Source: an uncultured bacterium
GTDB taxonomy: Bacteria > Armatimonadota > JACIXR01
DNA: 36,489 bases
Direction of reading: 5' to 3'
NCBI GenBank assembly: GCA_938041455.1
Contig: CALITO010000048.1
Coordinates: forward strand, 1 to 36,489
The notes beneath the pieces were generated by a model. That model ran no database searches. It saw only the letters and a program-made list of their open reading frames with translations, and was not told the DNA's origin. How positions within the stretch are numbered: position 1 is the first letter of the stretch; every line of letters starts with the position of its first letter. Of the stretch, positions 1 to 36,489 are shown piece after piece. The position numbers and the translations under genes are program-made.

Positions 1-362
1 TCATCGGGGGAGACGAGTCCGCCGACTATAACATCTACCTCATCAATCCGGATGGCACCGGCTTAGAGCAGATAACTTTCTTCACCGGCTTTTGGGCTAA
101 GAGTGAGAAGCCAACTGTCCTTGCGAAGGAGAAAGCGGAAAAAAGAGGGGAGAAAAAGCAGGAAGTGCAAATGGCAAGGAGCACCCAATCTCCTCTGGAA
201 ACCTCGAAAGGGGAAAAGCCATCTATTTCCTCCCCATCTCCTGCGGAAACCCCGAAAGAGGAGATGCCTTCCAATTCCTCCCGAGCTCCCCTCTTCGCAG
301 GAGGGCTCTCCCTCTCCGCCCTGGGTTATGCTCTTTGGAAGTTCCTGAAGTTCCTGTCTTGA
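1..362 (+). CDS. C-terminal end of a TolB/PD40-like beta-propeller protein (5' end outside window)
   Basis: An open frame enters from the left edge (first complete codon at base 3) and stops with TGA at 360-362, giving 119 visible residues. The first 25 or so contain DESADYNIYLINPDGTGL followed by EQIT, which matches the PD40/TolB propeller blade pattern (IY..N.DGT....LT). A low-complexity linker rich in Lys, Glu, Pro and Ser follows. The last 23 residues form a hydrophobic stretch (APLFAGGLSLSALGYALW) ending in KFLKFLS. This reads as a repeat domain, a flexible stalk and a C-terminal membrane anchor. TolB-like propellers usually act in the cell envelope; the exact role here cannot be told from the fragment. 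The gene converges on comF across a hairpin. Confidence 0.6.
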   Translation, partial: IGGDESADYNIYLINPDGTGLEQITFFTGFWAKSEKPTVLAKEKAEKRGEKKQEVQMARSTQSPLETSKGEKPSISSPSPAETPKEEMPSNSSRAPLFAGGLSLSALGYALWKFLKFLS

Positions 363-367
363 AAATT

Positions 368-392
368 GGGGGGGCGAATTCATTCGCCCCCC
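368..392. terminator. Bidirectional hairpin terminator between convergent genes
   Basis: An 11-bp perfect stem, GGGGGGCGAAT at 369-379 pairing with ATTCGCCCCCC at 382-392, lies in the 47-base gap between two convergent genes. On the minus strand it is followed by CAATTTTC, a short U-tract, so it best serves the comF operon. On the plus strand a weaker T run (CTTTTGTT) lies further downstream. Confidence 0.75.
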
Positions 393-409
393 TTAAAGGA
401 ACTCTTTTG

Positions 410-1135
410 TTAGATTTTTAAGGTTATATCTCTGGCCAGAGTTAACACCCAAACCCTTTGCGCCTTTGCTCGCTTTAGGGCGAGGGCGCAAGCGGAAGCG
501 GTAGCCCCAGTGGTCATCACATCGTCAACAAGCAAAACCCTCTTCCCTTCCACCTCCCTCTTTGAAGTAAGGGCAATTGCCCCCCTCACATTTGAGAACC
601 TCTCCCCGCGACTTAATCCCACCTGCCTTTTAACCTCTCGCCTCCACTCTAAGATATGAGGATAAAAGGGAAGAGAGAGGGAATGAGCAACTCCAGCCCC
701 TAATAGCAGAGAACTGCTGAATCCCCTTTCCCTCAAGCTCCCCTTATGGGGTGGAACCGTTACAACGCAGTCAATTTGCCAGTAAGGGGGTAGAGCCTTG
801 ATCATTATATTCCATAGCTTCTCAGCTATATCTGCTCTCCCCTTGAATTTGAAAGCGAGAAGGATCTCCCTTAAAATTCCCTCATATAGCCCCCCTGACC
901 TTGCCCCATCAAAATGGAGATTCAAATCCCTACAGTGATAGCAGATGGGACCCTCCTGCGGCGCACCACAAAGCTGACAAGGGTTGCTTATCCGCTTTAT
1001 CTCTTCCAAGCAATCCCCGCAAAGAAGCTCCCCCCTTTTCCCACAACCTATGCAGAAATCGGGAAAAACCAGTTCCAAAAGACCTTTCCCTGTCTCCTTG
1101 AATAGTCTCAGGAGGTGGCTACCTATTTGTTTCAT
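410..1135 (-). CDS. comF: ComF family phosphoribosyltransferase-like protein
   Basis: This 241-residue protein has the normal ComF length and layout. An N-terminal zinc-ribbon-like part has cysteine pairs C28/C31, C39/C42, C53/C56 and C65/C68. A type I phosphoribosyltransferase domain follows, with its PRPP loop LLVDDVMTTGAT at about 201-212. ComF proteins are cytosolic and needed for DNA uptake in several naturally competent bacteria; the substrate of the phosphoribosyltransferase fold is not settled. The ATG start is 15 bases after the stop of the glycosyltransferase gene, so comF is the last gene of the minus-strand operon starting at 5319, with a hairpin after it. No other competence gene is visible in the window. 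Confidence 0.9.
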   Translation of the reverse strand: MKQIGSHLLRLFKETGKGLLELVFPDFCIGCGKRGELLCGDCLEEIKRISNPCQLCGAPQEGPICYHCRDLNLHFDGARSGGLYEGILREILLAFKFKGRADIAEKLWNIMIKALPPYWQIDCVVTVPPHKGSLRERGFSSSLLLGAGVAHSLSLPFYPHILEWRREVKRQVGLSRGERFSNVRGAIALTSKREVEGKRVLLVDDVMTTGATASACALALKRAKAQRVWVLTLARDITLKI

Positions 1136-1150
1136 AGAATGTCCCTATAT

Positions 1151-1900
1151 CTAAAATTGGGAGCTTCTCAGCAGTTGACGCAGGATTAAGAGGTAAAAAT
1201 AAGGCAACCTTGCTACTTTCTCTATTTTTGAGGGCTGAACGAGGAGTCTATAGAGCCACTCCAAACCATACCTGCGCATCAAGCGAGGGGCTCTCCTCGC
1301 TCTTCCGGAAAGAACATCCAGAGTTCCTCCTACCCCCATTGCTACCTTCACTCCTAAATCTTTCCTGTTTCGCCATATAAACTTTTCCTGCTTGGGAATC
1401 CCCATACCCACAAGCAGGATATCCGCCTTGCTCTTCTTTATTTTTTTAACCACCTCCTTTTCCTCCTCTTCCTTGAAGTACCCATCCCCCCAGCCCACTA
1501 TTTGTATTTTTGGAAACGACCCTCGGATATTCTCGCTCGCCTTCTCCGCAACGCCGGGCACCCCCCCTAAAAGATATAATCTCCACCCTTCCTTTTCAAC
1601 TATCGGCAGTAGCTTCATAACGATATCAACTCCCGCTACCCGCTCTTTTATCGGTATACCGAGGAGTTTCGCACCCCACACTACGCCCATCCCATCGGGG
1701 GTGGCAAGGTCTGCGGAGCGCAGGATGCTTGCAAATTCCTCATCTTTGGAAGCTACAGTAAAAGCGTAAGCATCGCAGGTTGCTATAATATGGAACCCCC
1801 CTTCTTCTATAAATTGAGCGATCTTCTTAATAACCTCTTCCTCCCCCAGAGGGGAAAGTTTACCGTTTAGAAAAGGATAAGCTATGTCCCCTCTGCCCAC
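1151..1900 (-). CDS. WecG/TagA/CpsF family glycosyltransferase (GT26)
   Basis: The 249-residue protein matches the whole GT26 family. Visible motifs are TCDAYAF (41-47), the [16 protein letters not shown] block with Asp69, ERVAGVD (87-92), [12 protein letters not shown] (165-176), [11 protein letters not shown] (189-199), RRAP (202-205) and GLEWLYRL (212-219). These enzymes transfer a HexNAc-type sugar from a UDP-sugar to a lipid-linked acceptor at the inner face of the membrane, building teichoic acid linkage units, enterobacterial common antigen or exopolysaccharide. The C-terminal part is basic and hydrophobic, fitting a peripheral membrane enzyme. The start is GTG and overlaps the ahcY stop by 19 bases; the family N-terminus aligns from about residue 8, so the overlap seems real. 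The donor sugar cannot be told. Confidence 0.9.
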
Positions 1901-3141
1901 GACTGAAGGTATTTTTCCTGCTCGGGTGTGAGCTCGTCTATCTTGACACCGAGGGAAGCGAGTTTTAAGCGAGCAACAGTTTCCTCAACTTCCTTCGGCA
2001 CGGGATAAACATCAGGCTTTAAGGAATCGGCGCTTTTGGCGAGGTATTCTATACAGAGTGCCTGCGTTGCGAAGGACATATCCATCACGCTTGAAGGATG
2101 CCCCTCCCCAGCAGCCAAATTCACCAACCTTCCCTCTGCTAAAAGGTATATCCTTTTGCCGTCCTCTAATAGATACTCCTCTACCATAGGACGCACCCGC
2201 CTCTTGGACTTGCTCATCATTTCCAAGGCAGGGATATCTATCTCCACATCAAAATGTCCCGAGTTAGCCAATATAGCACCATCTTTCATCAGTTTGAAAT
2301 GTTCCCCCCTTAGAACGCTCTTGTCACCCGTTACAGTAACGAATATATCCCCTATTTCCGCGGCTTCCAGGGAGTGCATTACTAAGAAGCCATCCATTAC
2401 CGCTTCTAATGCTTTGAATGGGTCCACCTCACAGACGATAACCTGTGCTCCCATTCCCCTTGCCCTCATCGCCAACCCTTTTCCACACCAGCCGTAGCCG
2501 AATACAACGAACTTCTTGCCAGCGAGGAGGATGTTGGTCGCTCGTAGGATACCATCTATGGTTGATTGCCCTGTTCCATAGCGATTGTCAAAAAGAAACT
2601 TGGATTTCGCATCGTTGACCGCTATTATGGGATACTTGAGCACCCCTTCCCTCGCCATACTCCTCAACCTTATCACACCCGTGGTGGTTTCTTCCGTTCC
2701 TCCCTTTGTCCCTTCTAATAAGTCCCTTCTTTTTGTATGAAGTGTAGTGACCAGGTCTGCGCCATCGTCTATTGTGAAGAGAGGTCTTTCTTCCAATACC
2801 GCGATGATGTTTCGGTAATATGCTTCCCTATCATCACCCTTTATAGCGAAAACAGATATATTGAAGAATTTAACCAGAGCGGAAGCGACCTCATCTTGAG
2901 TACTTAGAGGATTAGATGCGCAGAGGAAAACTTGTGCCCCACCCTTAACCAGAGTTGAAGCGAGGTTAGCGGTTTCAGAGGTTATGTGCAAGCACCCACC
3001 TATCTTTATCCCCGCCAAAGGTTTCTCCCTCTCAAACCGTTCTCCTATCATTTTCAAAACGGGCATCTCTCTTCTCGCCCACTCCACTTTCCTTAACCCT
3101 TCTTCTGCCAAGGTAATGTCCTTTATACGATGTTTCACCAT
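1882..3141 (-). CDS. ahcY: Adenosylhomocysteinase (S-adenosylhomocysteine hydrolase)
   Basis: AhcY splits S-adenosylhomocysteine into adenosine and homocysteine, removing the product that inhibits methyltransferases. The 419-residue protein is complete. Catalytic landmarks are visible: LHITSETA with His52, DDGAD near 125-129, GGTEETTTG with Glu151, [14 protein letters not shown] with Lys181 and Asp185, and NSGHFD with His296. The NAD site is FGYGWCGKG (214-222). Length and C-terminus (QSWAEGT) match the short archaeal/Thermotoga-type enzyme, which lacks the roughly 40-residue insertion and the KPDHYRY tail of the common bacterial and eukaryotic form. It sits inside a sugar-nucleotide/glycosyltransferase operon, an unusual neighbourhood. 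Residues are assigned by homology, not by a computed alignment. Confidence 0.95.
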
Positions 3142-3162
3142 TTTAGAACTTAAACCTCCTTC

Positions 3163-4197
3163 TTATTTACGCGTGGGGCTCACTATCACTCCCTCAAAAA
3201 TCGCTGCGTTAGAGTAAACCTCGCAATTTTCACCTACTATACAGCCTTCTATCATTGTGTTCTTGCCCACTTTCGCACCTCGCCAAAGAATGCTCTGCTT
3301 GACCACCGCTCCTTCTTCAATTATACATCCGTCCCCTAACACTGTTCCCTCCAAAATCTGTGCTCCCCTCTTAATAATACATCCGTTCCCGATGACTACG
3401 GGGTATTCCATATAGGCGGATGGCTCTATCTCCACATTTTCCCCTTGCCAAAAAAATGGTTTAACCTCTTTCAAGGGGATATGAAAGTTTATCCTTTTAT
3501 AAAGGACATCCTTATGAGCTGCCCTATATTGCTTCATATTTCCCACATCTTTCCAATATCCTGAAGCGAGGTAGCCGTAGAAGGGAACCTTCCTGTCTAT
3601 GAGTAGAGGGAAAAGATCTCTTCCAAAGTCAAAGAATTGCCCCTCGGGAATGAAGGATAAAACCTTTGGCTCGAGTATATATATGCCGGTATTGACGGTA
3701 TTGGAGGGAATCCTTTCGCCCCGGGGCTTCTCAATGAAGGCTATTACCCTCCCCCTTTCGTTCGTGAGAACCACCCCATATTCACTTGGATCATCAACGA
3801 GAGATAGGGCGATGGTGACCATCGCCTTTTTCTCCTGGTGGTAAGCAAGGACCCGTCTTAAATCAATATCGCAAAGGTCATCTGCACCCACCACCAAGAA
3901 GGTGCTATCAAAATTATCTTCCACCTTTTTAACCCCTCCTGCTGTTCCCAGCGGTTCCTCCTCATAAGAATATTTTATTGAAACACCCCATTTCTCCCCA
4001 TTACCAAGCCAGTTAGTTATCCTCTCGGCAAGATAGTGGACATTTATTATGATCTCCCTAAAGCCGTGCTCCCTTAAGACCTCTATAATATGTTCTATGA
4101 CGGGCTTATTGGCTATGGGAACCATAGGTTTAGGCACATTACGAGTGAGAGGGTCAAGCCTTGACCCCACACCTGCCGCGAGAATCATCGCCTTCAT
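3163..4197 (-). CDS. Sugar-1-phosphate nucleotidyltransferase with left-handed beta-helix domain
   Basis: The 344-residue protein has an N-terminal nucleotidyltransferase domain: AAGVGSRLDPLT (7-18), the PKPMVPI loop (22-28), PLGTAGG (82-88), a metal-binding ADD near 105-107, EKPRGE (156-161), NTGIYIL (169-175) and YWKDVGN (214-220). Residues about 245-340 form hexapeptide repeats (VIGNGCIIKRGA, VLGDGCIIEEGA) of a left-handed beta helix. This layout is that of mannose-1-phosphate guanylyltransferase and glucose-1-phosphate thymidylyl/uridylyltransferase relatives, which make NDP-sugars. The nucleotide and sugar cannot be assigned by eye. Its ATG directly follows the TAA of the aminotransferase (TAAATG), indicating coupled translation and a shared pathway. 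Confidence 0.88.
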   Translation of the reverse strand: MKAMILAAGVGSRLDPLTRNVPKPMVPIANKPVIEHIIEVLREHGFREIIINVHYLAERITNWLGNGEKWGVSIKYSYEEEPLGTAGGVKKVEDNFDSTFLVVGADDLCDIDLRRVLAYHQEKKAMVTIALSLVDDPSEYGVVLTNERGRVIAFIEKPRGERIPSNTVNTGIYILEPKVLSFIPEGQFFDFGRDLFPLLIDRKVPFYGYLASGYWKDVGNMKQYRAAHKDVLYKRINFHIPLKEVKPFFWQGENVEIEPSAYMEYPVVIGNGCIIKRGAQILEGTVLGDGCIIEEGAVVKQSILWRGAKVGKNTMIEGCIVGENCEVYSNAAIFEGVIVSPTRK

Positions 4198-5319
4198 TTA
4201 TATTTCCCTTCTTTTATAAAATCTTCTTATAGCGTTGGCTACCCTTAAGATTTGTTCCTCTTTAAGTCCCGGATAAACTGGCAAGGATATAACTTCCTTA
4301 GCTGCCTTCTCCGCTTGAGGGAAATCCCCCTCTTTATAGCCGAGATAGGAAAAGGCAGGCTGAAGATGAAGAGGACAAGGATAATATACCATCGTTTGTA
4401 TCCCCTCACTTAGAAGATATCTCCTCAATTCGTCCCTCTCCTTCGCCCTTATGGTGAATTGATGGTAAACATGGTGATTATCTTGCGCCTCATAAGGTAG
4501 CGTTATCTCCTCCACATCGCTCAACAACTCCTTATAAAAGCGTGCGTTCTTCCTCCGCTCCTCCGTCCACTTCTCAAGGTATCTTAACTTAACCAGCAGT
4601 ACCGCCGCTTGTAATTCGTCCAACCTGCTATTAGTCCCCAGAAAATTAAAGGTGTAGTCCTTTCCTCCGTGGCAACGCATAAGTCTTAACCTTTGATATA
4701 GTTCCTCATTTGAGGTTAATACCATCCCCCCATCGCCCATTGCGCCAAGGTTTTTTGTGGGATAGAAACTAAGACATCCCACATCGCCAAAGGAGCAAAC
4801 CGGTTGCCCATTATGGGAGGCAGCTATAGCTTGAGCTGAATCCTCTATTATCAATAGGGAGTTAGCTTTCCCTAACTGGGTTATCCTCCCCATATCGCAA
4901 GCCTGCCCGAAAAGGTGCACCGGCATTATAGCCTTCGTCCTCCTGCTAATTCTTTTTCCTATTTCATCAGGGGAAATATTGAAGGTCAATGGGTCTATAT
5001 CTGCGAAAATTGGACGCGCTCCCACTATGATGACGCTCTCAGCTGAAGCAACGAAAGAGAAGGGAGAGGTTATCACCTCGTCCCCTCTCCCTATGTTCAA
5101 AGCATGGAGAGAAAGGGTGAGGGCATCTGTGCCCGAATTAACCCCCACACCATATTTTACACCACACAGTTTTGCTATTTCCCTTTCCAATTTCTCAACA
5201 TTCTCACCTAATACATACCTTCCCGAGGTTATAACTTGCTCTACGAGGGGCAACATTTCATTCAGCAAAAGGTTGTGCTGGTAGGCAAGATCATTTATAG
5301 GAATTATCTCCTTTTCCAT
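4198..5319 (-). CDS. DegT/DnrJ/EryC1/StrS family PLP-dependent sugar aminotransferase
   Basis: Members of this family transfer an amino group from glutamate to a keto group on a nucleotide-linked sugar. The 373-residue protein starts with PINDL (7-11) and has GVNSGTDAL (59-67), PVHLFGQACDM (133-143), the PLP-contacting IEDSAQA (158-164), and SFYPTKNLGAMGDGG (184-198), where Lys189 is the expected Schiff-base lysine. Later come GTNSRLDELQAA and HVYHQFTIR, both typical. Length is normal. It is the first gene of the minus-strand operon and lies opposite the GT2/oxidoreductase operon; a Gfo/Idh/MocA dehydrogenase next to such an aminotransferase resembles Wlb-type 3-amino-sugar pathways, which is inference. 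The start has no Shine-Dalgarno and follows a TATAAT box closely. Confidence 0.92.
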   Translation of the reverse strand: MEKEIIPINDLAYQHNLLLNEMLPLVEQVITSGRYVLGENVEKLEREIAKLCGVKYGVGVNSGTDALTLSLHALNIGRGDEVITSPFSFVASAESVIIVGARPIFADIDPLTFNISPDEIGKRISRRTKAIMPVHLFGQACDMGRITQLGKANSLLIIEDSAQAIAASHNGQPVCSFGDVGCLSFYPTKNLGAMGDGGMVLTSNEELYQRLRLMRCHGGKDYTFNFLGTNSRLDELQAAVLLVKLRYLEKWTEERRKNARFYKELLSDVEEITLPYEAQDNHHVYHQFTIRAKERDELRRYLLSEGIQTMVYYPCPLHLQPAFSYLGYKEGDFPQAEKAAKEVISLPVYPGLKEEQILRVANAIRRFYKRREI

Positions 5320-5328
5320 TTAAAAGAA

Positions 5329-5334
5329 ATTATA
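5329..5334 (-). promoter_or_regulatory. -10 box of the minus-strand sugar operon, leaderless-type
   Basis: On the minus strand TATAAT occupies 5334-5329. The ATG of the aminotransferase begins at 5319, so a standard start about 7 bases downstream would leave a 5' leader of only about 3 bases. No Shine-Dalgarno lies directly before the ATG. No convincing -35 box was found. Confidence 0.45.
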
Positions 5335-5364
5335 TTCTCCTTTCTTCAGGGGAGTCAAATTTTT

Positions 5365-5370
5365 TATAAT
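5365..5370 (+). promoter_or_regulatory. -10 box of the GT2/oxidoreductase operon, near-leaderless
   Basis: TATAAT at 5365-5370 lies 12 bases before the ATG at 5383, predicting a leader of about 6 bases. The bases between are AT-rich and lack a Shine-Dalgarno. The -35 position (5342-5347, TTCTTC) is a poor match. The two boxes in this 63-base divergent spacer drive opposite sugar operons and may be co-regulated. Confidence 0.45.
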
Positions 5371-5382
5371 TTGTATTGAAAA

Positions 5383-6348
5383 ATGAGCGCAACAAAGGTT
5401 TCGGTTATCTCCACAGTGCTTAACGAGGAAATCAGTATAGGAGAGCTTCTGGAAGCTCTATCAGCCCAAACATTCACACCAGAGGAAATAGTCATTGTTG
5501 ACGCTGGTTCCCGAGATAAAACGGTTGCCCTTATGGAGAAGTATGCCCATTCCTTACCCCTCAAGGTATTTGTATGCCCGGGCGCGAATAGGGCAGAGGG
5601 AAGAAATATCGCCATTAGGGAGGCAAGTGGAGATATCATAGTTTCTATAGATGGGGGATGTATCCCCTACCCTAACTGGTTGGAGAATCTCGTTTCCCCT
5701 TTAATAGAGGAGAGCTCTTTGGATGTTGTGGGAGGATACTACGAGCCAGTAGTTAACACTCCTTTACAGGAAGCCATCGCGGCTTTGACAGTGCCGTCTC
5801 CCAAGGACATCTCGCCCTCTGAGTTCCTTCCTTCTTCTCGCAGCGTTGCCTTCCGCAAGCAGGTTTGGGAAAGAGTGGGAGGTTACCCCGAATGGATGAG
5901 GAGCGCCGAGGACACAGTCTTTGATATCCTCCTAAAAAAAGCGGGAGCGAAGTTCCTTTTCCAGCCGGAGGCGAAGGTTAAGTGGCGTATGCGAGAGTCT
6001 CTTCGGGGAGTATTTCGCCAGTTTTATGAATATTCCTTTTGGGATGCCCGAGCAGGTGTTTTCTTCCCACACTATCATAAGATATGGCTCTATTTGGGGG
6101 GTCTTATCCTTCTTATCCTCTCCTGCTTTTTCCCAGCGGTATTTTATGCCCTGAGCATAGGCTTTTTAATTTACATCTCCCGCTTCTATTTCCGAGCAAA
6201 AAGGAGGAGGCTATCTCCCAAGGCTTATCTATGGCTTTTACCCGCCTTATTTACCTATGACCTTGGCAATGTGAGCGGTTATATATTGGGAAAATTAACC
6301 TCACTTAAGCAAAAAATTAAAAGCGAAGGAGGCGAGATATCTTGTTAA
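5383..6348 (+). CDS. Family 2 (GT-A) glycosyltransferase with C-terminal membrane segments
   Basis: The N-terminus VSVISTVLNEE and IVIVDAGSRDKT (42-53) are the classic GT2 nucleotide-sugar binding strands. IVSIDGGCIPYPNWL holds the DxD-like position (here DGG). An acceptor-side SAEDTVF block supplies an ED(x) motif around residue 170. Residues about 225-260 contain two close hydrophobic spans (LYLGGLILLILSC, AVFYALSIGFLIYI) and a basic stretch RAKRRRL follows; a further hydrophobic segment lies near 285-305. The enzyme is thus anchored at the inner membrane with a cytosolic catalytic domain, as for enzymes adding sugars to lipid-linked or polymer acceptors. It is 321 residues and overlaps the next gene by 7 bases. 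Acceptor and donor are unknown. Confidence 0.88.
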   Translation: MSATKVSVISTVLNEEISIGELLEALSAQTFTPEEIVIVDAGSRDKTVALMEKYAHSLPLKVFVCPGANRAEGRNIAIREASGDIIVSIDGGCIPYPNWLENLVSPLIEESSLDVVGGYYEPVVNTPLQEAIAALTVPSPKDISPSEFLPSSRSVAFRKQVWERVGGYPEWMRSAEDTVFDILLKKAGAKFLFQPEAKVKWRMRESLRGVFRQFYEYSFWDARAGVFFPHYHKIWLYLGGLILLILSCFFPAVFYALSIGFLIYISRFYFRAKRRRLSPKAYLWLLPALFTYDLGNVSGYILGKLTSLKQKIKSEGGEISC

Positions 6349-7322
6349 AAGTAGGTATTATTGGCGCGGGAACTATGGGAAGAACGCATGCCCAAGCTTG
6401 GGCAGATACAAGGAGGGTAGAAATAGTTGGAATCTACGACGCAAACCCCTCCTATGCCGAAGCTCTTGCTTCCCATTACTCCACCTCTTTCTTGGACTTC
6501 CCCCAATTGTTAAAGAAGGCCGACATAGTAGATGTTTGCACCCCTACCCACACCCATCATCACTATGTGGTGGAGTCAGCAAGGGCAGGAAAGCACATCT
6601 TCTGTGAGAAGCCCCTGGCGAGGACACTTGAGCAAGGAGAGGAGATGTTGAAAGAAGTGGAGAAAGCTAAGGTGAAATTTATGGTCGGGCAGGTCCTCCG
6701 ATGGTTCCCCGAGTATAGGAAGGCGAAACAAATGATAGAGGAAGGAGCCATAGGTAATCCCCTAAGTGCCAGGACGACAAGGGGCGGCGCTTTCCCCCGG
6801 GGGATAGCAGATTGGTATGCGGATTTTGAGAAAAGCGGAGGCGTCATATTAGACCTCATAATCCACGATTTTGATTTCCTCCGCTGGTGTTTTGGAGAAG
6901 TGGAGAGAGTGTTCGCTTATTCCCTTACATTCCGTAGGTTGGAACATCTTGACTATACCCTAGTCATCCTCCGCTTTCGCTCGGGAGTAGTAGCCCACAT
7001 TGAGGGTATCTTTGCTTATCCCCCCGGTTCCCCCTTCCGCACCTCCTATGAAATAGTGGGCGATGGGGGAATGCTCATCTTTGATAATCAATCCACGATG
7101 CCTTTGAAGGCTTTAACCAAACCAAAGGAAAGCGCAATGGGTGTAGCGGTTCCAGAGAGCCCACTGGCGGAAAATCCCTACTTTTTGGAAATAGAGCATT
7201 TCCTTACCTGCGTAGAAAAGGGATTAGAACCCGAGGTAAAGGCCGAGGATGGCTTCCAAGCTATTAGAATAGCCCTATCCGCCATAGAATCGGTCAAGCT
7301 GGGTAAACCAGTGTATCTATAA
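6342..7322 (+). CDS. Gfo/Idh/MocA family NAD(P)-dependent sugar oxidoreductase
   Basis: The 326-residue protein has a Rossmann fold starting with GIIGAGTMGRTHA (5-17), the family signature EKPLA with catalytic Lys90, and the C-terminal-domain motif GGVILDLIIHDFDFLRW (166-182) with Asp171 and His175 at the usual active-site positions. Such enzymes oxidise or reduce a hydroxyl/keto group on sugars, inositols or nucleotide sugars using NAD(P). The TTG start at 6342 lies inside the end of the glycosyltransferase gene (7-base overlap), so translation is coupled. It appears catalytically complete, unlike its downstream neighbour. With the divergent aminotransferase it could supply the keto-sugar that is aminated; that is inference. 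Confidence 0.92.
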   Translation: MLKVGIIGAGTMGRTHAQAWADTRRVEIVGIYDANPSYAEALASHYSTSFLDFPQLLKKADIVDVCTPTHTHHHYVVESARAGKHIFCEKPLARTLEQGEEMLKEVEKAKVKFMVGQVLRWFPEYRKAKQMIEEGAIGNPLSARTTRGGAFPRGIADWYADFEKSGGVILDLIIHDFDFLRWCFGEVERVFAYSLTFRRLEHLDYTLVILRFRSGVVAHIEGIFAYPPGSPFRTSYEIVGDGGMLIFDNQSTMPLKALTKPKESAMGVAVPESPLAENPYFLEIEHFLTCVEKGLEPEVKAEDGFQAIRIALSAIESVKLGKPVYL

Positions 7323-27899: not shown

Positions 27900-27928
27900 T
27901 TGCTTTTTCTTTTTCTTGGTTATATACT
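27900..27928 (+). promoter_or_regulatory. Promoter of the HNH gene, leaderless-type
   Basis: TTGCTT (27900-27905) and TATACT (27923-27928) are 17 bases apart. The preferred ATG at 27939 lies 10 bases after the -10 box, so the leader would be about 4 bases. No Shine-Dalgarno precedes that ATG. Confidence 0.5.
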
Positions 27929-27938
27929 TTTATTAACG

Positions 27939-28448
27939 ATGCAGGTATTGTTACTGAACAGCGATTTTACGCCGTTGAATGTCTGTAGCCTAAGGAGGGC
28001 TATAGGACTCCTGCTTGTCGATAAGGTGGATGTCATCCACTACGATGGCACTTATATAAGGACCCCCACCGGGACAATGAGAGTCCCTTCCGTCATCAGG
28101 TTGAAGTATTACATAAAGCGACCTATCCCCGAACTCAAACTAACTCGCAAGAACATCCTTGCTAGGGATAATTATACCTGTCAATACTGTGGACAAAAGG
28201 GCGGGGAACTGACCGTTGACCATGTAATTCCCAAGAAGATGGGAGGAAAAACCGATTGGGACAATCTTGTGTGCTCTTGCAAAAGGTGTAATGCGAGGAA
28301 AAAGGATAAGACCCCTCAACAGGCGGGAATGAAACTCCTCCGTCAGCCCAAGAGACCTTACTTCATTCCTTTCATAAGCCTCACCAAATATCGCTACTGC
28401 CTCGAGAGGGAGGACTGGCGCCCCTACCTTCCCCCTATCTCCGATTAG
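27939..28448 (+). CDS. HNH endonuclease family protein
   Basis: The 169-residue protein has the N-terminal part of the common HNH family (VLLLNSDFTPLNVCSLRRAI, then VDVIHYDGTYIRTPTG) and a C-terminal HNH domain. The latter has zinc pairs CQYC and CKRC, DHVIPKKMGG with the catalytic His, and DWDNLVCSCKRCNARK with the conserved Asn. HNH domains cut DNA with one metal ion; members of this standalone group have no settled role. An upstream in-frame start at 27900 would add a hydrophobic MLFLFLGYILLLT, which lies on the promoter and is absent from the family, so ATG 27939 is preferred. It stands alone upstream of tRNA-Gln. Confidence 0.85.
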   Translation: MQVLLLNSDFTPLNVCSLRRAIGLLLVDKVDVIHYDGTYIRTPTGTMRVPSVIRLKYYIKRPIPELKLTRKNILARDNYTCQYCGQKGGELTVDHVIPKKMGGKTDWDNLVCSCKRCNARKKDKTPQQAGMKLLRQPKRPYFIPFISLTKYRYCLEREDWRPYLPPISD

Positions 28449-31795: not shown

Positions 31796-31824
31796 TTGAC
31801 AAGAGGGTCCTTCAACTCTATAAT
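31796..31824 (+). promoter_or_regulatory. Consensus promoter of tRNA-Asn
   Basis: TTGACA (31796-31801) and TATAAT (31819-31824) are both perfect and spaced by 17 bases. The start falls near 31831, about 5 bases before the mature tRNA. Confidence 0.85.
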
Positions 31825-31910: not shown

Positions 31911-31955
31911 TATTACTTTCAAAAAATGGGATTTCTTAGGATAATGTAAATAACT

Positions 31956-33230
31956 ATGCAATATAAGAAGTTACAAAACCATCAATTAGCAATGGAATTT
32001 GATGAAGTATCCAATCTTTCATCTAAAAAGGTGCTTATATTATTTAGAAATTCAATTCCCGAAATACCCTCAACTACTTATGGAACCTTTGCAATCTATA
32101 AATACCCGGCTAAATTTATTCCCCAAGTGATTGCTTATGTTTTAAAAAACTACGCCAAACCTGGAATGAAAATATTTGACCCTTTCGCTGGGTATGGCAC
32201 CACAGGATTAGTAGCTAGAATTTATGGGTATGATTATGAACTTTGGGATTTAAATCCCATAATAGAAGTAATCCATAAAACAACAACGCTTAAAAAATCC
32301 CTTAAAACTCAAGATTTAATAGAATTACTAGAAGAAATTAAAAAATCACAAAAGGAATTTATACCTAATTGGAGTAATTTAAATTATTGGTTTCCTAAAG
32401 AATTTCTCCTCCTCCTTTCAAAGGCCTGGGGATTCGCTCATTCCTTACCAGAAGATACTAAATACTTCTTTCTAATTCCCCTTTTAAACACTACTCGATA
32501 TTTTAGTTGGAGTGATGAAACAGTCCATAAATTGTATAAATCCAAATATTCAAGAAAAAAAGTGGAAAATTTGCTTGAAGGAAATTGGGAAACGAGATTT
32601 TATAGAATGTTGAGAGACGAAGTCTTCAAACTTTTTAATAAAATATGTGAATATGAAAAACTTGACCCCAAATCGGTAAATTTTAAAATTAAATCGGGAG
32701 TGGATACATTAGAAACAAGGCTTGATGAAGCGGTGAATATTCTAATTACATCCCCTCCCTATCTTCAAGCTCAAGAATACATTAGATCCACAAAGCTTGA
32801 ATTATTCTGGTTGGGATATACTGAAGATTATATTAAAAATTTAAGTAAAAAAGAAATTCCTTACCGTAATGTAAATGAGATAGAGATTTATTCAAAAAAA
32901 TACCACGAATTTAGGGAAAAAATAAAAGAAAGTCATTTGAGAACCCTTTTTGAGAGATACTTCAAGGCAATTTTGGGTGCTTTCTCAACCCTTGGAGAAA
33001 AAGTGGAAAATTATATGTGTATTTTTGTTGGTCCAGCTAAAATAAGGGCAACTCCTATTCCTATTGATGATATTGTCATTGAGCATCTCCAAAAATTTGG
33101 TTGGAAACATGAGGTTACCTATATAGATAAAATTTTATCTCGTGTAATGTTTGAATCGAATATTAATCCTGCCACTGGAATGAAAGATAGCAGGATTAAA
33201 ACCGAACATTTAGTTATATTGAAAAAATGA
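31956..33230 (+). CDS. Site-specific DNA methyltransferase (N4/N6 amino type)
   Basis: The 424-residue protein carries AdoMet-dependent amino-methyltransferase motifs. YKYPAKFIPQVI (48-59) resembles the HPYPAKF block, FDPFAGYGTTG (74-84) is motif I for AdoMet, LWDLNP (96-101) is motif II-like, and ITSPPYLQAQEY (264-275) is catalytic motif IV; SPPY is usual in N4-cytosine and some N6-adenine enzymes. A central region (110-255) would hold the target-recognition part. It overlaps the next gene by 4 bases (ATGA), suggesting a restriction-modification pair. GC is far below the genes upstream. A GATAAT at 31940-31945 lies 10 bases before the ATG, with no Shine-Dalgarno. Target site and methylated base are unknown. 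Confidence 0.88.
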   Translation: MQYKKLQNHQLAMEFDEVSNLSSKKVLILFRNSIPEIPSTTYGTFAIYKYPAKFIPQVIAYVLKNYAKPGMKIFDPFAGYGTTGLVARIYGYDYELWDLNPIIEVIHKTTTLKKSLKTQDLIELLEEIKKSQKEFIPNWSNLNYWFPKEFLLLLSKAWGFAHSLPEDTKYFFLIPLLNTTRYFSWSDETVHKLYKSKYSRKKVENLLEGNWETRFYRMLRDEVFKLFNKICEYEKLDPKSVNFKIKSGVDTLETRLDEAVNILITSPPYLQAQEYIRSTKLELFWLGYTEDYIKNLSKKEIPYRNVNEIEIYSKKYHEFREKIKESHLRTLFERYFKAILGAFSTLGEKVENYMCIFVGPAKIRATPIPIDDIVIEHLQKFGWKHEVTYIDKILSRVMFESNINPATGMKDSRIKTEHLVILKK

Positions 33231-34225
33231 AAAGAAAGATTGCTAATATTCATCCTCTTCTAAAAAAGGAACTTAACAGCCCCTCTGCGTTTAAAAAAAG
33301 AGAAGGAGAGTATGTTAAACTACCTCAAGAAATCATCAGAAAAGAAAGCGGAATGATTTTCGATGTTGAAGAATTGAGCGATTTACTTCTCTCTGTATGT
33401 AGATCTAACGATTTTAATGTAATTAAATTTCAAAAAAATAGAACATTTTTAGATGAAGATAAAGTTTTAAAATGGGTGAAGGAAAAATTGATTCCGAATA
33501 CAGTAATTGTAAGTATTGATGATGAAGATTTAGTAAGATTGCTAATATTTTGTATTGAAATTACCTATCAAATGTTTGCGGGTGGCACAAGGGCAACAGT
33601 GACCCAAAAGGGGTTTCGGGAAAGGAGAAGAACTTTTGAATCTATACTCGCGGATCAGTTTGTCGGAAAGTTAGGAGAGATTATGGTTAAAAAATTTCTT
33701 GAAAAAAATTACCCAACTAAAATAGAATTGGATTGGGATATTTCAACTCAAATAGAAAAATATAGAAATGATATTATAAATGCAAAAAAGAAAGTGAGCA
33801 TAAAGACATCACCGTCTTTGGCTGGAATTTGGGCAGAAGCAGATATAGGTTATGATTATGGTATAACTGTCAAATGCTCTGTTCCTCAACCTCCCATTTT
33901 GCAGTTTTTTATTGAAGTTTGTGGATTCTCAAAATTGCTTGATTTTGCTGAGGCAAAAATTCCTTCTTCTGATAAACGATTTCGAAATTATCTTCAAGAG
34001 ATGAGAAACAGGATTAAAAATTATAAATGTGGAGAGATACAGACAAAGCTAAAAGGTTTCATCTGTGGATATTTTAAGACATCCGAATACAGACCTTTGC
34101 AGGAAGGAAGAATATTGCCTTATTTAGGGAAAGTTAGAGAGACCAGATATTTAGTCCCTATTAACGATCTTAAATATACCAAAGAGGACTGGAAGATTTT
34201 CCTTAAAGAAATGGATTTAATATAA
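33227..34225 (+). CDS. Putative restriction endonuclease partner, PD-(D/E)xK-like
   Basis: I do not recognise the family. The 332-residue protein follows the methyltransferase with an ATGA overlap, the usual place for a cognate endonuclease. Around 145-195 it has a plausible PD-(D/E)xK core: FVGKLGEIMVKKFLEK with Glu151, then KYRNDIINAKKKVSIKTS with Asp182 and Lys193 in the form D-x(8)-(V/I)-S-I-K. Ser replaces the usual Glu/Asp before Lys, a variant known in some restriction enzymes. RATVTQKGFRERRR (122-135) is strongly basic and may contact DNA. Composition matches the methyltransferase gene, so both were probably acquired together. The nuclease call rests on context plus this short motif. 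Confidence 0.6.
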   Translation: MKRKIANIHPLLKKELNSPSAFKKREGEYVKLPQEIIRKESGMIFDVEELSDLLLSVCRSNDFNVIKFQKNRTFLDEDKVLKWVKEKLIPNTVIVSIDDEDLVRLLIFCIEITYQMFAGGTRATVTQKGFRERRRTFESILADQFVGKLGEIMVKKFLEKNYPTKIELDWDISTQIEKYRNDIINAKKKVSIKTSPSLAGIWAEADIGYDYGITVKCSVPQPPILQFFIEVCGFSKLLDFAEAKIPSSDKRFRNYLQEMRNRIKNYKCGEIQTKLKGFICGYFKTSEYRPLQEGRILPYLGKVRETRYLVPINDLKYTKEDWKIFLKEMDLI

Positions 34226-34260
34226 CAAGAACTCCTAATTTTTGAAAGTAATCTTGAGTG

Positions 34261-34556: not shown

Positions 34557-36086
34557 ATGGGATTTTTAAAGAAAAATTTTATTTTTTTAACAGTTTTTAT
34601 TACCGGAGCAGCTGTCTTAGTGATTGAGGTTACAGCCACCAGAATTCTTACTCCTTATTTTGGGAATACTCTTTTTGTTATTTCTAGCATTCTCGGCGTT
34701 GTTTTGGGAGGATTGAGTTTGGGATATTTTTTAGGAGGGATTTTAGCTGATAAACATCCAAAATTTTCTCTCTTTTTTTTCCTTATTTTTTTGGCTGGCA
34801 TTTTTTCTCTTTTAATTCAATTTTTTTCCAAGACTATCTTACCTCTTGCCGGAGAAATTTTGGGCATAAAATTCGGTCCGCTGATTTCTAGTTGCTTTTT
34901 GTTTTTCTTGCCAAGTTTGATTTTAGGAACAATTTCTCCTTTTGCTATCAAATTAATAACCTTGGAACTGAAAGAAGTTGGTAGAGTTTCAGGGAAAGTG
35001 TTTTTCTGGTCAACCCTCGGAAGTATTTTTGGGAGTTTTTTAACTGGCTTTTATTTAATCCCTCATTTTGGGACAAGGAAAATCCTCTTTTATAATGGAC
35101 TGTTACTTTTGTTCCTTGGATATTTTGGAATTTGGTTTTCAAAAGATAATGGAAAGAAAAATTATTTTCTCAAATTTATATTGGTTTTATTTTTGATCAT
35201 CATCTTAGCCCTATCTTCGATTGAATTTCTTTTGCCAAAATCAACATCGATCATTTTTCAAAAAGAGGGTCTTTACGGCCCGATAATCGTGGAGGAAATA
35301 TTGTTTAATGGAAAAAAAATTAGGGTTTTGCGGTTTGATCCTGCTTATCAAGCAGGAGTTTTTTTAGATTCTGATGATCTGCCCTTTGAATACACAAAAT
35401 ACTATTCAATTTACGAGATCATTAATCCTCAGGCAGAAAAGGCTTTATTCTTGGGAGGGGGAGGTTATACTACGCCCCGCCGACTTTTACTCGACAAAAA
35501 CAATATCAAAAGGATTGATGTGGTGGAGATTGAGCCCTCACTTTATCAGATCGCAAAGCAATACTTTAAACTTGAAGACGATCCGAGATTAGTTAACCAC
35601 ATTGGCGATGGCCGAAGATTTTTGAAGGAGACGAACGAAAAATACGACTTCATCTTTTCCGATGTCTACTCTTCTCTTTATTTCATTCCTGTTCATTTTA
35701 CCACTCAAGAATTTTTTTCGCTTGCCAAAAGTAAGCTCAAGGAAAATGGATTTTTTCTCATAAATATTATTGGGGCATTAGAGCCAAATAAAAACCAACT
35801 ATTGTTTTCAATAGTGAAAACTTTCCAAAAGGTTTTTGAAAATAGTTATCTTTTTGCGGTTCAATCGCCAAGTCATTTAGGGATTCAAAATTTTATCCTC
35901 GTTGGCCTTAAAAACCCAGCTCAAAAAATAGATTTTACAAGACCAGAAATTTTAGAAAGTGAAAGCGAAATCATTCGCAATTTGCCTCAAAAAATTGTTG
36001 ATCTGGAAAAGTTAAACTTAGATTCAGCCTTCATTTTCACTGACGATTTTGCTCCACTTGAATACTTAACCGCAAAACTTTTTTAA
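34557..36086 (+). CDS. Membrane-fused spermidine-synthase-like methyltransferase
   Basis: The 509-residue protein has an N-terminal membrane half with about seven spans (e.g. FIFLTVFITGAAVLVIE, ISSILGVVLGGLSLGYFLGG, SLFFFLIFLAGIFSLL) and a C-terminal Rossmann methyltransferase-like domain. The latter has KALFLGGGGYTTPRRLL (295-311) as motif I, DVVEIEPSLYQIA (321-333) with Glu325, HIGDGRRFL (348-356) and YDFIFSDVYSS (363-373), as in spermidine synthases. Such fusions are common in uncultured lineages, and polyamine synthesis by them is unproven. Ile is mainly ATT and Leu TTG/TTA, unlike the genes before 31.9 kb. No Shine-Dalgarno precedes the ATG. Confidence 0.85.
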   Translation: MGFLKKNFIFLTVFITGAAVLVIEVTATRILTPYFGNTLFVISSILGVVLGGLSLGYFLGGILADKHPKFSLFFFLIFLAGIFSLLIQFFSKTILPLAGEILGIKFGPLISSCFLFFLPSLILGTISPFAIKLITLELKEVGRVSGKVFFWSTLGSIFGSFLTGFYLIPHFGTRKILFYNGLLLLFLGYFGIWFSKDNGKKNYFLKFILVLFLIIILALSSIEFLLPKSTSIIFQKEGLYGPIIVEEILFNGKKIRVLRFDPAYQAGVFLDSDDLPFEYTKYYSIYEIINPQAEKALFLGGGGYTTPRRLLLDKNNIKRIDVVEIEPSLYQIAKQYFKLEDDPRLVNHIGDGRRFLKETNEKYDFIFSDVYSSLYFIPVHFTTQEFFSLAKSKLKENGFFLINIIGALEPNKNQLLFSIVKTFQKVFENSYLFAVQSPSHLGIQNFILVGLKNPAQKIDFTRPEILESESEIIRNLPQKIVDLEKLNLDSAFIFTDDFAPLEYLTAKLF

Positions 36087-36099
36087 TCTTATTTTTTAT

Positions 36100-36489
36100 A
36101 TGGAAAATTATAGTGATGAAAAATTAGTAAGGAATTATTTAAAAGGTAATGAAGAATCGTTAGAGGTTTTGGTGAGGAAATATTTGAAACCAATTTTTAG
36201 TTTTGTTTTTCGCTTGGTGGAAAATAGTCAAGAGGCAGAAGATATTACTCAAGAGGTTTTTGTTAAAGCTTGGCGAAATTTGAAAAAGTTTAATCCAAAA
36301 CAAAGTTTTAAAACCTGGCTTTTTACCATTGCCAAAAATACTTGCCTTGATTGGTTAAGGAAAAAGAAAGAAATTTTATTTTCTGAATTAGAAAGAAAAG
36401 AGGAAAAATTTTTCATCCAAAACATTCCCGACTCCAAACCTTTGCCAGATGAAATCTTTGAAAGAAAAGATTTGGCTAATTTATTAAAG
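36100..36489 (+). CDS. ECF-type RNA polymerase sigma factor, cut by window end
   Basis: The 130 visible residues cover sigma region 2: ESLEVLVRKYLKPIFSFVFR, AEDITQEVFVKAWRNLKKF (47-64, the -10 recognition helix) and FKTWLFTIAKNTCLDWLRKKK (70-90). The linker before region 4 follows (DSKPLPDEIFERKDLANLLK) and the frame is open to the last base. It starts 13 bases after the previous gene and has no Shine-Dalgarno (TTTTTTATATGG). ECF factors redirect RNA polymerase in response to envelope or other stress; an anti-sigma gene might follow outside the window. The gene is AT-rich, like its neighbour. Confidence 0.88.
   Translation, partial: MENYSDEKLVRNYLKGNEESLEVLVRKYLKPIFSFVFRLVENSQEAEDITQEVFVKAWRNLKKFNPKQSFKTWLFTIAKNTCLDWLRKKKEILFSELERKEEKFFIQNIPDSKPLPDEIFERKDLANLLK

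What the first reader, a model, noticed from the sequence alone, without database searches (positions are those of the whole stretch)
31956..34225. Candidate uncharacterised restriction-modification pair
A methyltransferase with FDPFAGYGTTG and TSPPY overlaps by ATGA a 332-residue protein I cannot place in a family, but which has Glu151, Asp182 and SIK193 in a PD-(D/E)xK-like arrangement. The compact pair lies beside a tRNA in foreign-looking DNA, the usual setting of mobile defence systems. The nuclease may define a new restriction family.
Basis: partly seen in the sequence, partly recalled or inferred. Interest (0 to 1): 0.65.

Follow-up and report, generated by a model that had tools for sequence, protein, structure and literature searches.

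The report
Travelling Type II restriction-modification gene pair
Two overlapping genes almost certainly encode a DNA-marking enzyme and its partner DNA-cutting enzyme, a known kind of bacterial anti-virus defence that jumps between bacteria and archaea; the cutter belongs to a family absent from the standard protein catalogues, and some archaeal and bacterial viruses carry the marking enzyme alone, probably to escape it.

Summary
In detail: two ORFs (31956-33230, 33227-34225) overlapping by ATGA, 45 bp after tRNA-Asn, in DNA of 0.31-0.32 GC against 0.47. The first is an amino-DNA-methyltransferase (motif order X-I-IV). It is full-length homologous to the Sulfolobus virus STSV1/STSV2 methylases and, distantly, to methylases that sit beside MvaI/BcnI endonucleases, so N4-cytosine is the likely mark. 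The second (332 aa) has no Pfam or NCBIfam match and only a weak but recurrent match to one PADLOC type II REase profile. In 12 intact homologues E151, D182, K193 and E204 are invariant. With those 12 sequences AlphaFold rises from pLDDT 45 to 83 and gives a helix/strand order compatible with PD-(D/E)xK. No solved structure matched. Every locus with a substantial nuclease gene has the methylase directly upstream; M and R distances correlate at 0.90. Nuclease genes decay (in-frame stop in the genome's second copy; truncation plus K193R in an archaeon) while methylases stay intact. A phage contig and STSV1/2 carry the methylase without the nuclease. Best reading: a Type II R-M cassette, an ordinary kind with a nuclease outside the curated families. 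Specificity and catalysis are untested.

The parts
31956..33230 (+). M gene: amino-DNA-methyltransferase, 424 aa, motif order X (YPAKF, aa 50-54), I (FDPFAGYGTTG, aa 74-84), IV (TSPPY, aa 265-269); probably N4-cytosine
   Evidence: ORF; Pfam N6_N4_Mtase 9.2e-7; PADLOC MTase_II 4.5e-33; phrog_18146 DNA methyltransferase 4.5e-125; 65-67% to STSV1/2 methylases; alignments
33227..34225 (+). R gene: probable PD-(D/E)xK-type Type II restriction endonuclease, 332 aa; invariant E151, D182, K193, E204
   Evidence: ORF; invariant residues in 12 homologues; AlphaFold pLDDT 83, pTM 0.82; PADLOC REase_II weak hit in 7 of 12 members; always beside M
33227..33230 (+). ATGA stop/start overlap of M and R (translational coupling likely)
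   Evidence: the same overlap in L003, L006 and L008
31836..31910 (+). tRNA-Asn(GTT), host gene immediately upstream; conserved in the genus
31796..31824 (+). perfect sigma-70 consensus TTGACA-17-TATAAT in front of tRNA-Asn, with matching elements in front of the same tRNA in two relatives; plausible read-through promoter for M-R
   Evidence: read-through is inference
31912..31937 (+). left arm of an imperfect 26-nt inverted repeat bracketing the cassette
   Evidence: 14-nt exact match between junction zones in 4 of 20000 Markov sequences; absent at other copies
34227..34252 (-). right arm of the same inverted repeat, one base after the R stop codon
34392..34428 (+). terminator-like stem-loop downstream of R
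   Evidence: one found, 2.1 expected in shuffles, so weak

Best explanation
The pair is a horizontally transferred Type II restriction-modification system. M methylates a short sequence in the host's own DNA, most likely on cytosine N4. R, a single-chain endonuclease probably of the PD-(D/E)xK superfamily with the variant active site E151...D182...(S)xK193...(E204), cuts the same sequence where it is unmethylated, destroying entering phage or plasmid DNA. The genes are read as one unit, M first and R coupled through the ATGA overlap, so the protecting enzyme precedes the cutter. Shown: gene anatomy, strict linkage, joint inheritance, purifying selection, invariant candidate catalytic residues, loss of R with M kept, and viruses carrying M alone. 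Inferred: cutting activity, base and sequence methylated, transcription from the tRNA promoter. If the resemblance of the viral homologue to M.PspGI, as its depositors wrote, carries over, the target would be CCWGG-like; this is a guess (about 0.3).
For: Co-occurrence: M lies directly upstream of R in every locus holding at least 200 residues of R (own second copy, Parcubacteria, two Archaeoglobi, Thermodesulfovibrionales, KSB1 at its contig edge, three same-phylum genomes, four further archaeal genomes, one damaged pair). M and R identity matrices correlate at r = 0.90, 0 of 5000 permutations. dN/dS between the two copies of this genome is 0.09 (M) and 0.19 (R). The 84%-identical second copy has an in-frame TGA in R and an intact M; an archaeal copy has R truncated with K193 changed to R and an intact M. 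E151, D182, K193, E204 are invariant in 12 sequences down to 43% identity. Structure. Weak PADLOC REase_II match in 7 of 12 members. M relatives on plasmids sit beside MvaI/BcnI-family REases (L052 by Pfam). M without R in a tailed-phage contig with portal, capsid, protease and baseplate genes and in STSV1/STSV2.
Against: No solved structure matched the model (all E above 1), so the nuclease fold is not confirmed; the significant matches are uncharacterised viral proteins, one named 'Restriction endonuclease'. No sequence hit to any named REase family in Pfam, NCBIfam or PDB. The residue two before K193 is S or C, not D/E, so the classical motif is not met. Site avoidance gave no specificity signal: CCWGG z -3.4, GGWCC z -3.8.
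Confidence: 0.86

Rival explanations
1. R is a restriction enzyme but not of PD-(D/E)xK type, or not a phosphodiesterase (for example a base-excising restriction glycosylase); M-R would still be an R-M pair.
For: No solved PD-(D/E)xK structure was matched by the model and the acidic residue before xK is replaced by Ser/Cys.
Against: Helix with invariant E, invariant D, strand with invariant K and a following invariant E are the elements of PD-(D/E)xK enzymes, and the CCGG-family uses a PD...K...D/E permuted site (PMC6344858). One viral structural match is named restriction endonuclease.
Confidence: 0.09
2. The second protein is not a nuclease but an accessory or regulatory partner of the methylase, and the pair is an epigenetic regulator rather than a defence system.
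For: No activity has been shown; no family assignment in Pfam or NCBIfam.
Against: R decays while M stays intact, viruses keep M alone, distribution is patchy and horizontal (5/291, 8/394 and 1/396 genomes), candidate catalytic residues are invariant, and a REase profile matches.
Confidence: 0.04
3. R is a modification-dependent (Type IV-like) nuclease that happens to lie beside a methylase.
For: No tool result points to it; it is only not excluded by experiment.
Against: A nuclease that cuts what its own operon's methylase makes would be suicidal; the strict M-first linkage and M-R co-divergence fit protection.
Confidence: 0.02
4. The low-GC end of the contig is an assembly join at the tRNA rather than a real insertion.
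For: Low GC begins directly after a tRNA and runs to the contig end; in two same-genus genomes other DNA follows the tRNA.
Against: A diverged second copy of the same pair lies on another contig of the genome beside an intact nuoA-like gene, also in a low-GC stretch, so the pair belongs to this lineage; reads could not be checked. This would not change what the genes are.
Confidence: 0.1

Closest known systems
STSV1/STSV2 viral methylases (YP_077254.1, YP_007348303.1; STSV1 annotated 'similar to PspGI methylase') and the 4mC-type methylase reported in all Borgs (PMC11208441)
   Same: M is 65-67% identical to the STSV proteins over 96% of its length; the Borg paper names these same two proteins as homologues of the Borg methylase
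   Different: In the viruses no R gene lies beside the methylase; here it is one half of an R-M pair
PspGI R-M system (Pyrococcus, CCWGG)
   Same: M family, by the depositors' annotation of the STSV1 homologue only
   Different: R has no detectable sequence relation to any PDB chain, in which PspGI is represented to my knowledge; M.PspGI itself could not be compared here
MvaI/BcnI-type R-M systems
   Same: M shares 23-25% full-length identity and motif order with methylases that sit beside MvaI/BcnI REases
   Different: R does not match PF15515; profile-profile comparison with four such REases gives a probability of 0.1 percent
CCGG-family restriction endonucleases (Cfr10I, NgoMIV, EcoRII, PspGI)
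   Same: Candidate site E...D...(S)xK...E resembles their permuted PD...K...D/E site (PMC6344858)
   Different: No sequence or structural match; 10 residues lie between K193 and E204, 12-13 in Cfr10I and NgoMIV from my own knowledge
PADLOC REase_II profile PDLC03411
   Same: Weak match in 7 of 12 members; in the window protein over residues 121-202, spanning the candidate active site
   Different: Scores are low (18 bits for the window protein) and the rest of the protein is not covered

Membership tests
Type II restriction-modification system | Separate methyltransferase and endonuclease genes, closely linked | tested here: met
   (that R is an endonuclease is itself inferred)
Type II restriction-modification system | M is an AdoMet-dependent DNA methyltransferase | tested here: met
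   Pfam PF01555, PADLOC MTase_II, PHROG 18146; motifs X, I, IV conserved
Type II restriction-modification system | R cleaves DNA at the sequence that M protects | not testable with these tools
   needs biochemistry; only indirect support (R decay, viral orphan M)
Type II restriction-modification system | No ATP-dependent translocase or separate specificity subunit | tested here: met
   neighbouring genes are tRNA-Asn, spermidine synthase and sigma factor; neither protein has a helicase domain
PD-(D/E)xK nuclease superfamily | Conserved E/D...D...xK residues | tested here: met
   E151, D182, K193 invariant in 12 sequences; position -2 of K is S/C, with E204 as possible replacement acid
PD-(D/E)xK nuclease superfamily | alpha-beta-beta-beta-alpha-beta core | tested here: inconclusive
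   helix 137-161, strands 190-195, 202-205, 211-218, helix 221-231, strand 274-284 in a model of mean pLDDT 83, but no solved PD-(D/E)xK structure matched
MvaI/BcnI restriction endonuclease family (PF15515) | Match to the family profile | tested here: not met
CCGG-family / PspGI-EcoRII endonucleases | Sequence or structural similarity to members | tested here: not met
N4-cytosine methyltransferase | Methylates cytosine at N4 | not testable with these tools
   inferred from SPPY motif, relatives beside MvaI/BcnI REases, PDB profile hits that include DNA cytosine-N4 methyltransferases and 4mC inferred for the Borg homologue
Integrative element at a tRNA | tRNA 3'-end direct repeat and integrase | tested here: not met
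   no direct repeat of the tRNA end and no integrase up to the contig end; the element may continue beyond it

The most novel reading that the evidence does not exclude
R founds a new restriction-endonuclease family with a variant E...D...SxK...E site, and this R-M family is the restriction pressure that the STSV1/2, phage and Borg 4mC-type methylases evolved to counter, making a family-level arms race across archaea and bacteria testable.
Probability: 0.35. Interest if true: 0.55.

Novelty: new member of a known kind. Interest (0 to 1): 0.4.

Why it matters
It adds an endonuclease lineage, unnamed in Pfam and NCBIfam, to Type II restriction systems, spread across several bacterial phyla and archaea. 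It also supplies a candidate nuclease partner for a viral and extrachromosomal methylase family whose purpose has been guessed at: STSV1 DNA is reported to be cytosine-modified, and Borgs carry a homologue to which 4mC is attributed (PMC11208441). If the enzymes are active they would be thermophile-derived reagents with a new protein scaffold.

Tried and rejected
AlphaFold with 6 close homologues gave pLDDT 45 and was set aside; 12 rows gave 83. Foldseek against PDB gave nothing usable. Search for the PADLOC family PDLC03411 in whole genomes matched none, controls included, so its true members could not be fetched. No R relatives in viral contigs, plasmids or phages. MvaI/BcnI membership of R rejected. 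Neighbours of more distant plasmid methylases were screened with the R profile and none is related. Recognition-site avoidance in 133 kb of the host is dominated by general 4-bp palindrome depletion and is not informative. The flanking inverted repeat was tested as a transposon end: it is above chance here but absent at the other copies and in other host stretches, so it is only noted. The integrative-element reading at the tRNA found no att repeat or integrase. The STSV1, PspGI cloning and PspGI/EcoRII/Ecl18kI specificity papers are not in the held library.

Full report
Observation. Both reading frames exist exactly as described and overlap by ATGA. tRNA-Asn ends 45 bp before the methylase start. 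GC falls from 0.472 in the rest of the window to 0.312 and 0.321 in the two genes, and GC3 from about 0.50 to about 0.25. The window is the whole of contig C48 of a 2.2-Mb, 50-contig genome.

The methylase. M matches N6_N4_Mtase (9.2e-7), PADLOC MTase_II (4.5e-33) and PHROG 18146 'DNA methyltransferase' over nearly its whole length (4.5e-125). Motif X (YPAKF) and motif I (FDPFAGYGTTG) precede motif IV (TSPPY) by about 190 residues, an order conserved in distant relatives. Among plasmid relatives at 23-27% identity, four annotated neighbours are MvaI/BcnI-family endonucleases and a fifth is by Pfam. MvaI- and BcnI-type methylases act on cytosine N4 (own knowledge), which with SPPY makes m4C the likely product. 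The closest sequences outside R-M pairs are, besides a phage-contig homologue described below, the Sulfolobus virus STSV1 and STSV2 methylases, 66.6 and 65.1% identical over 96% of M; the first is annotated 'similar to PspGI methylase'.

The second protein. Pfam, NCBIfam, PHROGs and PDB sequences give no meaningful match, singly or as a profile. PADLOC profile PDLC03411 (Type II restriction enzyme) matches 7 of 12 members, weakly, over residues 121-202 in the window protein (best 1.5e-5 among members, 4e-4 for the window's own). In the 12-row alignment, with identities to the window protein of 43-72%, E151, D182, K193 and E204 are invariant; S191 is nearly so. The acid normally two residues before the lysine is Ser/Cys; E204 is a candidate replacement, as in the permuted PD...K...D/E site of CCGG-family enzymes (PMC6344858), although the spacing differs. 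AlphaFold went from pLDDT 45 with six rows to 83.2, pTM 0.82, with twelve. The model places E151 on a long helix (137-161), K193 on a strand (190-195), then strands 202-205 and 211-218, a helix 221-231 and a strand 274-284. Foldseek found no solved structure but about twenty viral proteins at high probability, nearly all uncharacterised, one named 'Restriction endonuclease'.

Linkage and history. Seven loci in GTDB genomes, a second copy in the same genome, and further copies in its phylum and in an archaeal phylum were examined. Wherever at least 200 residues of R are encoded, M lies directly upstream in the same direction, as far as contigs allow. Identities of M and R co-vary across 12 loci (r = 0.90, 0 of 5000 permutations). 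The window pair is closer to a Parcubacteria copy (72% in R) than to a same-genus copy (58%), the mark of horizontal transfer. Occurrence is rare and patchy: 5 of 291, 8 of 394 and 1 of 396 genomes. In several hosts the pair is an AT-rich island of about 3 kb. In this genus pth and tRNA-Asn are followed by different DNA in the relative G207, and no M or R was found near pth or tRNA-Asn in G206.

Functional signature. Between the two copies in this genome dN/dS is 0.09 for M and 0.19 for R. The second copy has one in-frame TGA in R and an intact M. An archaeal copy has an intact M and an R truncated by a stop in which K193 has become R. R fragments without an intact M exist in Coatesbacteria, G207, G296, G324 and G495 (G495 lies at a contig edge). 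Loss of the cutter with retention of the protector is what an R-M system predicts. Independently, an IMG/VR contig of 52.6 kb with portal, major head protein, head protease, tape-measure and baseplate genes carries an M 69-71% identical, in a block of other methylases, and no R was found in it. STSV1 and STSV2 also carry M with no R annotated beside it, and no R relative was found in the phage collection at all. The Borg study names these two viral proteins as homologues of a methylase found in all Borgs, attributes a 4mC mark to it, and recalls that STSV1 DNA is cytosine-modified (PMC11208441). Viral self-methylation against this R-M family is the natural reading; it is inference.

Expression. 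A perfect TTGACA-17-TATAAT precedes tRNA-Asn, and TTGACA/TATAAT elements precede the same tRNA in both relatives. The scan found no terminator-like site between tRNA and M, so read-through is plausible but not shown.

Mobility. The cassette is bracketed by an imperfect 26-nt inverted repeat whose arms begin within one base of the tRNA end and of the R stop codon. A 14-nt exact inverted match between such zones arises in 4 of 20000 random pairs, but other copies lack it. No tRNA direct repeat or integrase was seen up to the contig end, so an integrative element is not shown.

Verdict. The pair is very probably a Type II R-M system (0.86). The kind is well known; what is uncommon is a nuclease outside the curated families and a methylase family shared with viruses and Borgs. 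It is rated as a new member of a known kind. REBASE was not searchable here, and predicted relatives may already be listed there.

Noticed in passing
L019:17206-19514 (own genome, contig C3): Second, 84-88% identical copy of the pair directly upstream of a nuoA-like gene; R has an in-frame TGA, M is intact.
   Followed up: yes
window 31912-31937 and 34227-34252: Imperfect 26-nt inverted repeat bracketing the R-M pair to within one base at each side; not found at other copies.
   Followed up: partly
L069 (IMG/VR contig, 52.6 kb), 44-7235: Tailed-phage contig with a block of five methyltransferase-like genes, one of them the M homologue without R.
   Followed up: yes
window 34557-36489: Low GC continues past the cassette through a fused MFS/spermidine-synthase-like gene (only 36-37% identical to relatives in its genus) and an ECF sigma factor to the contig end; the foreign stretch may be larger than the pair.
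   Followed up: partly
L009:5197-6537: In Coatesbacteria only the last 178 residues of R remain, downstream of a 262-aa protein with no Pfam match, in an AT-rich patch.
   Followed up: partly
L074:905-2897: Archaeal copy with intact M and an R truncated by a stop in which the candidate catalytic K193 is R.
   Followed up: yes
window 31796-31824: Perfect sigma-70 consensus promoter in front of tRNA-Asn, with matching elements at the same place in two relatives.
   Followed up: yes
window 1-31900 and loci L019-L028 (own genome): Strong depletion of 4-bp palindromes in 133 kb (GTAC 11 observed, 168 expected; CTAG 36 against 352; CATG 74 against 374; GATC 152 against 523), suggesting a history of other restriction systems.
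   Followed up: no
window 27900-28445: Stand-alone HNH endonuclease gene (PF14279/PF01844) upstream of tRNA-Gln.
   Followed up: no
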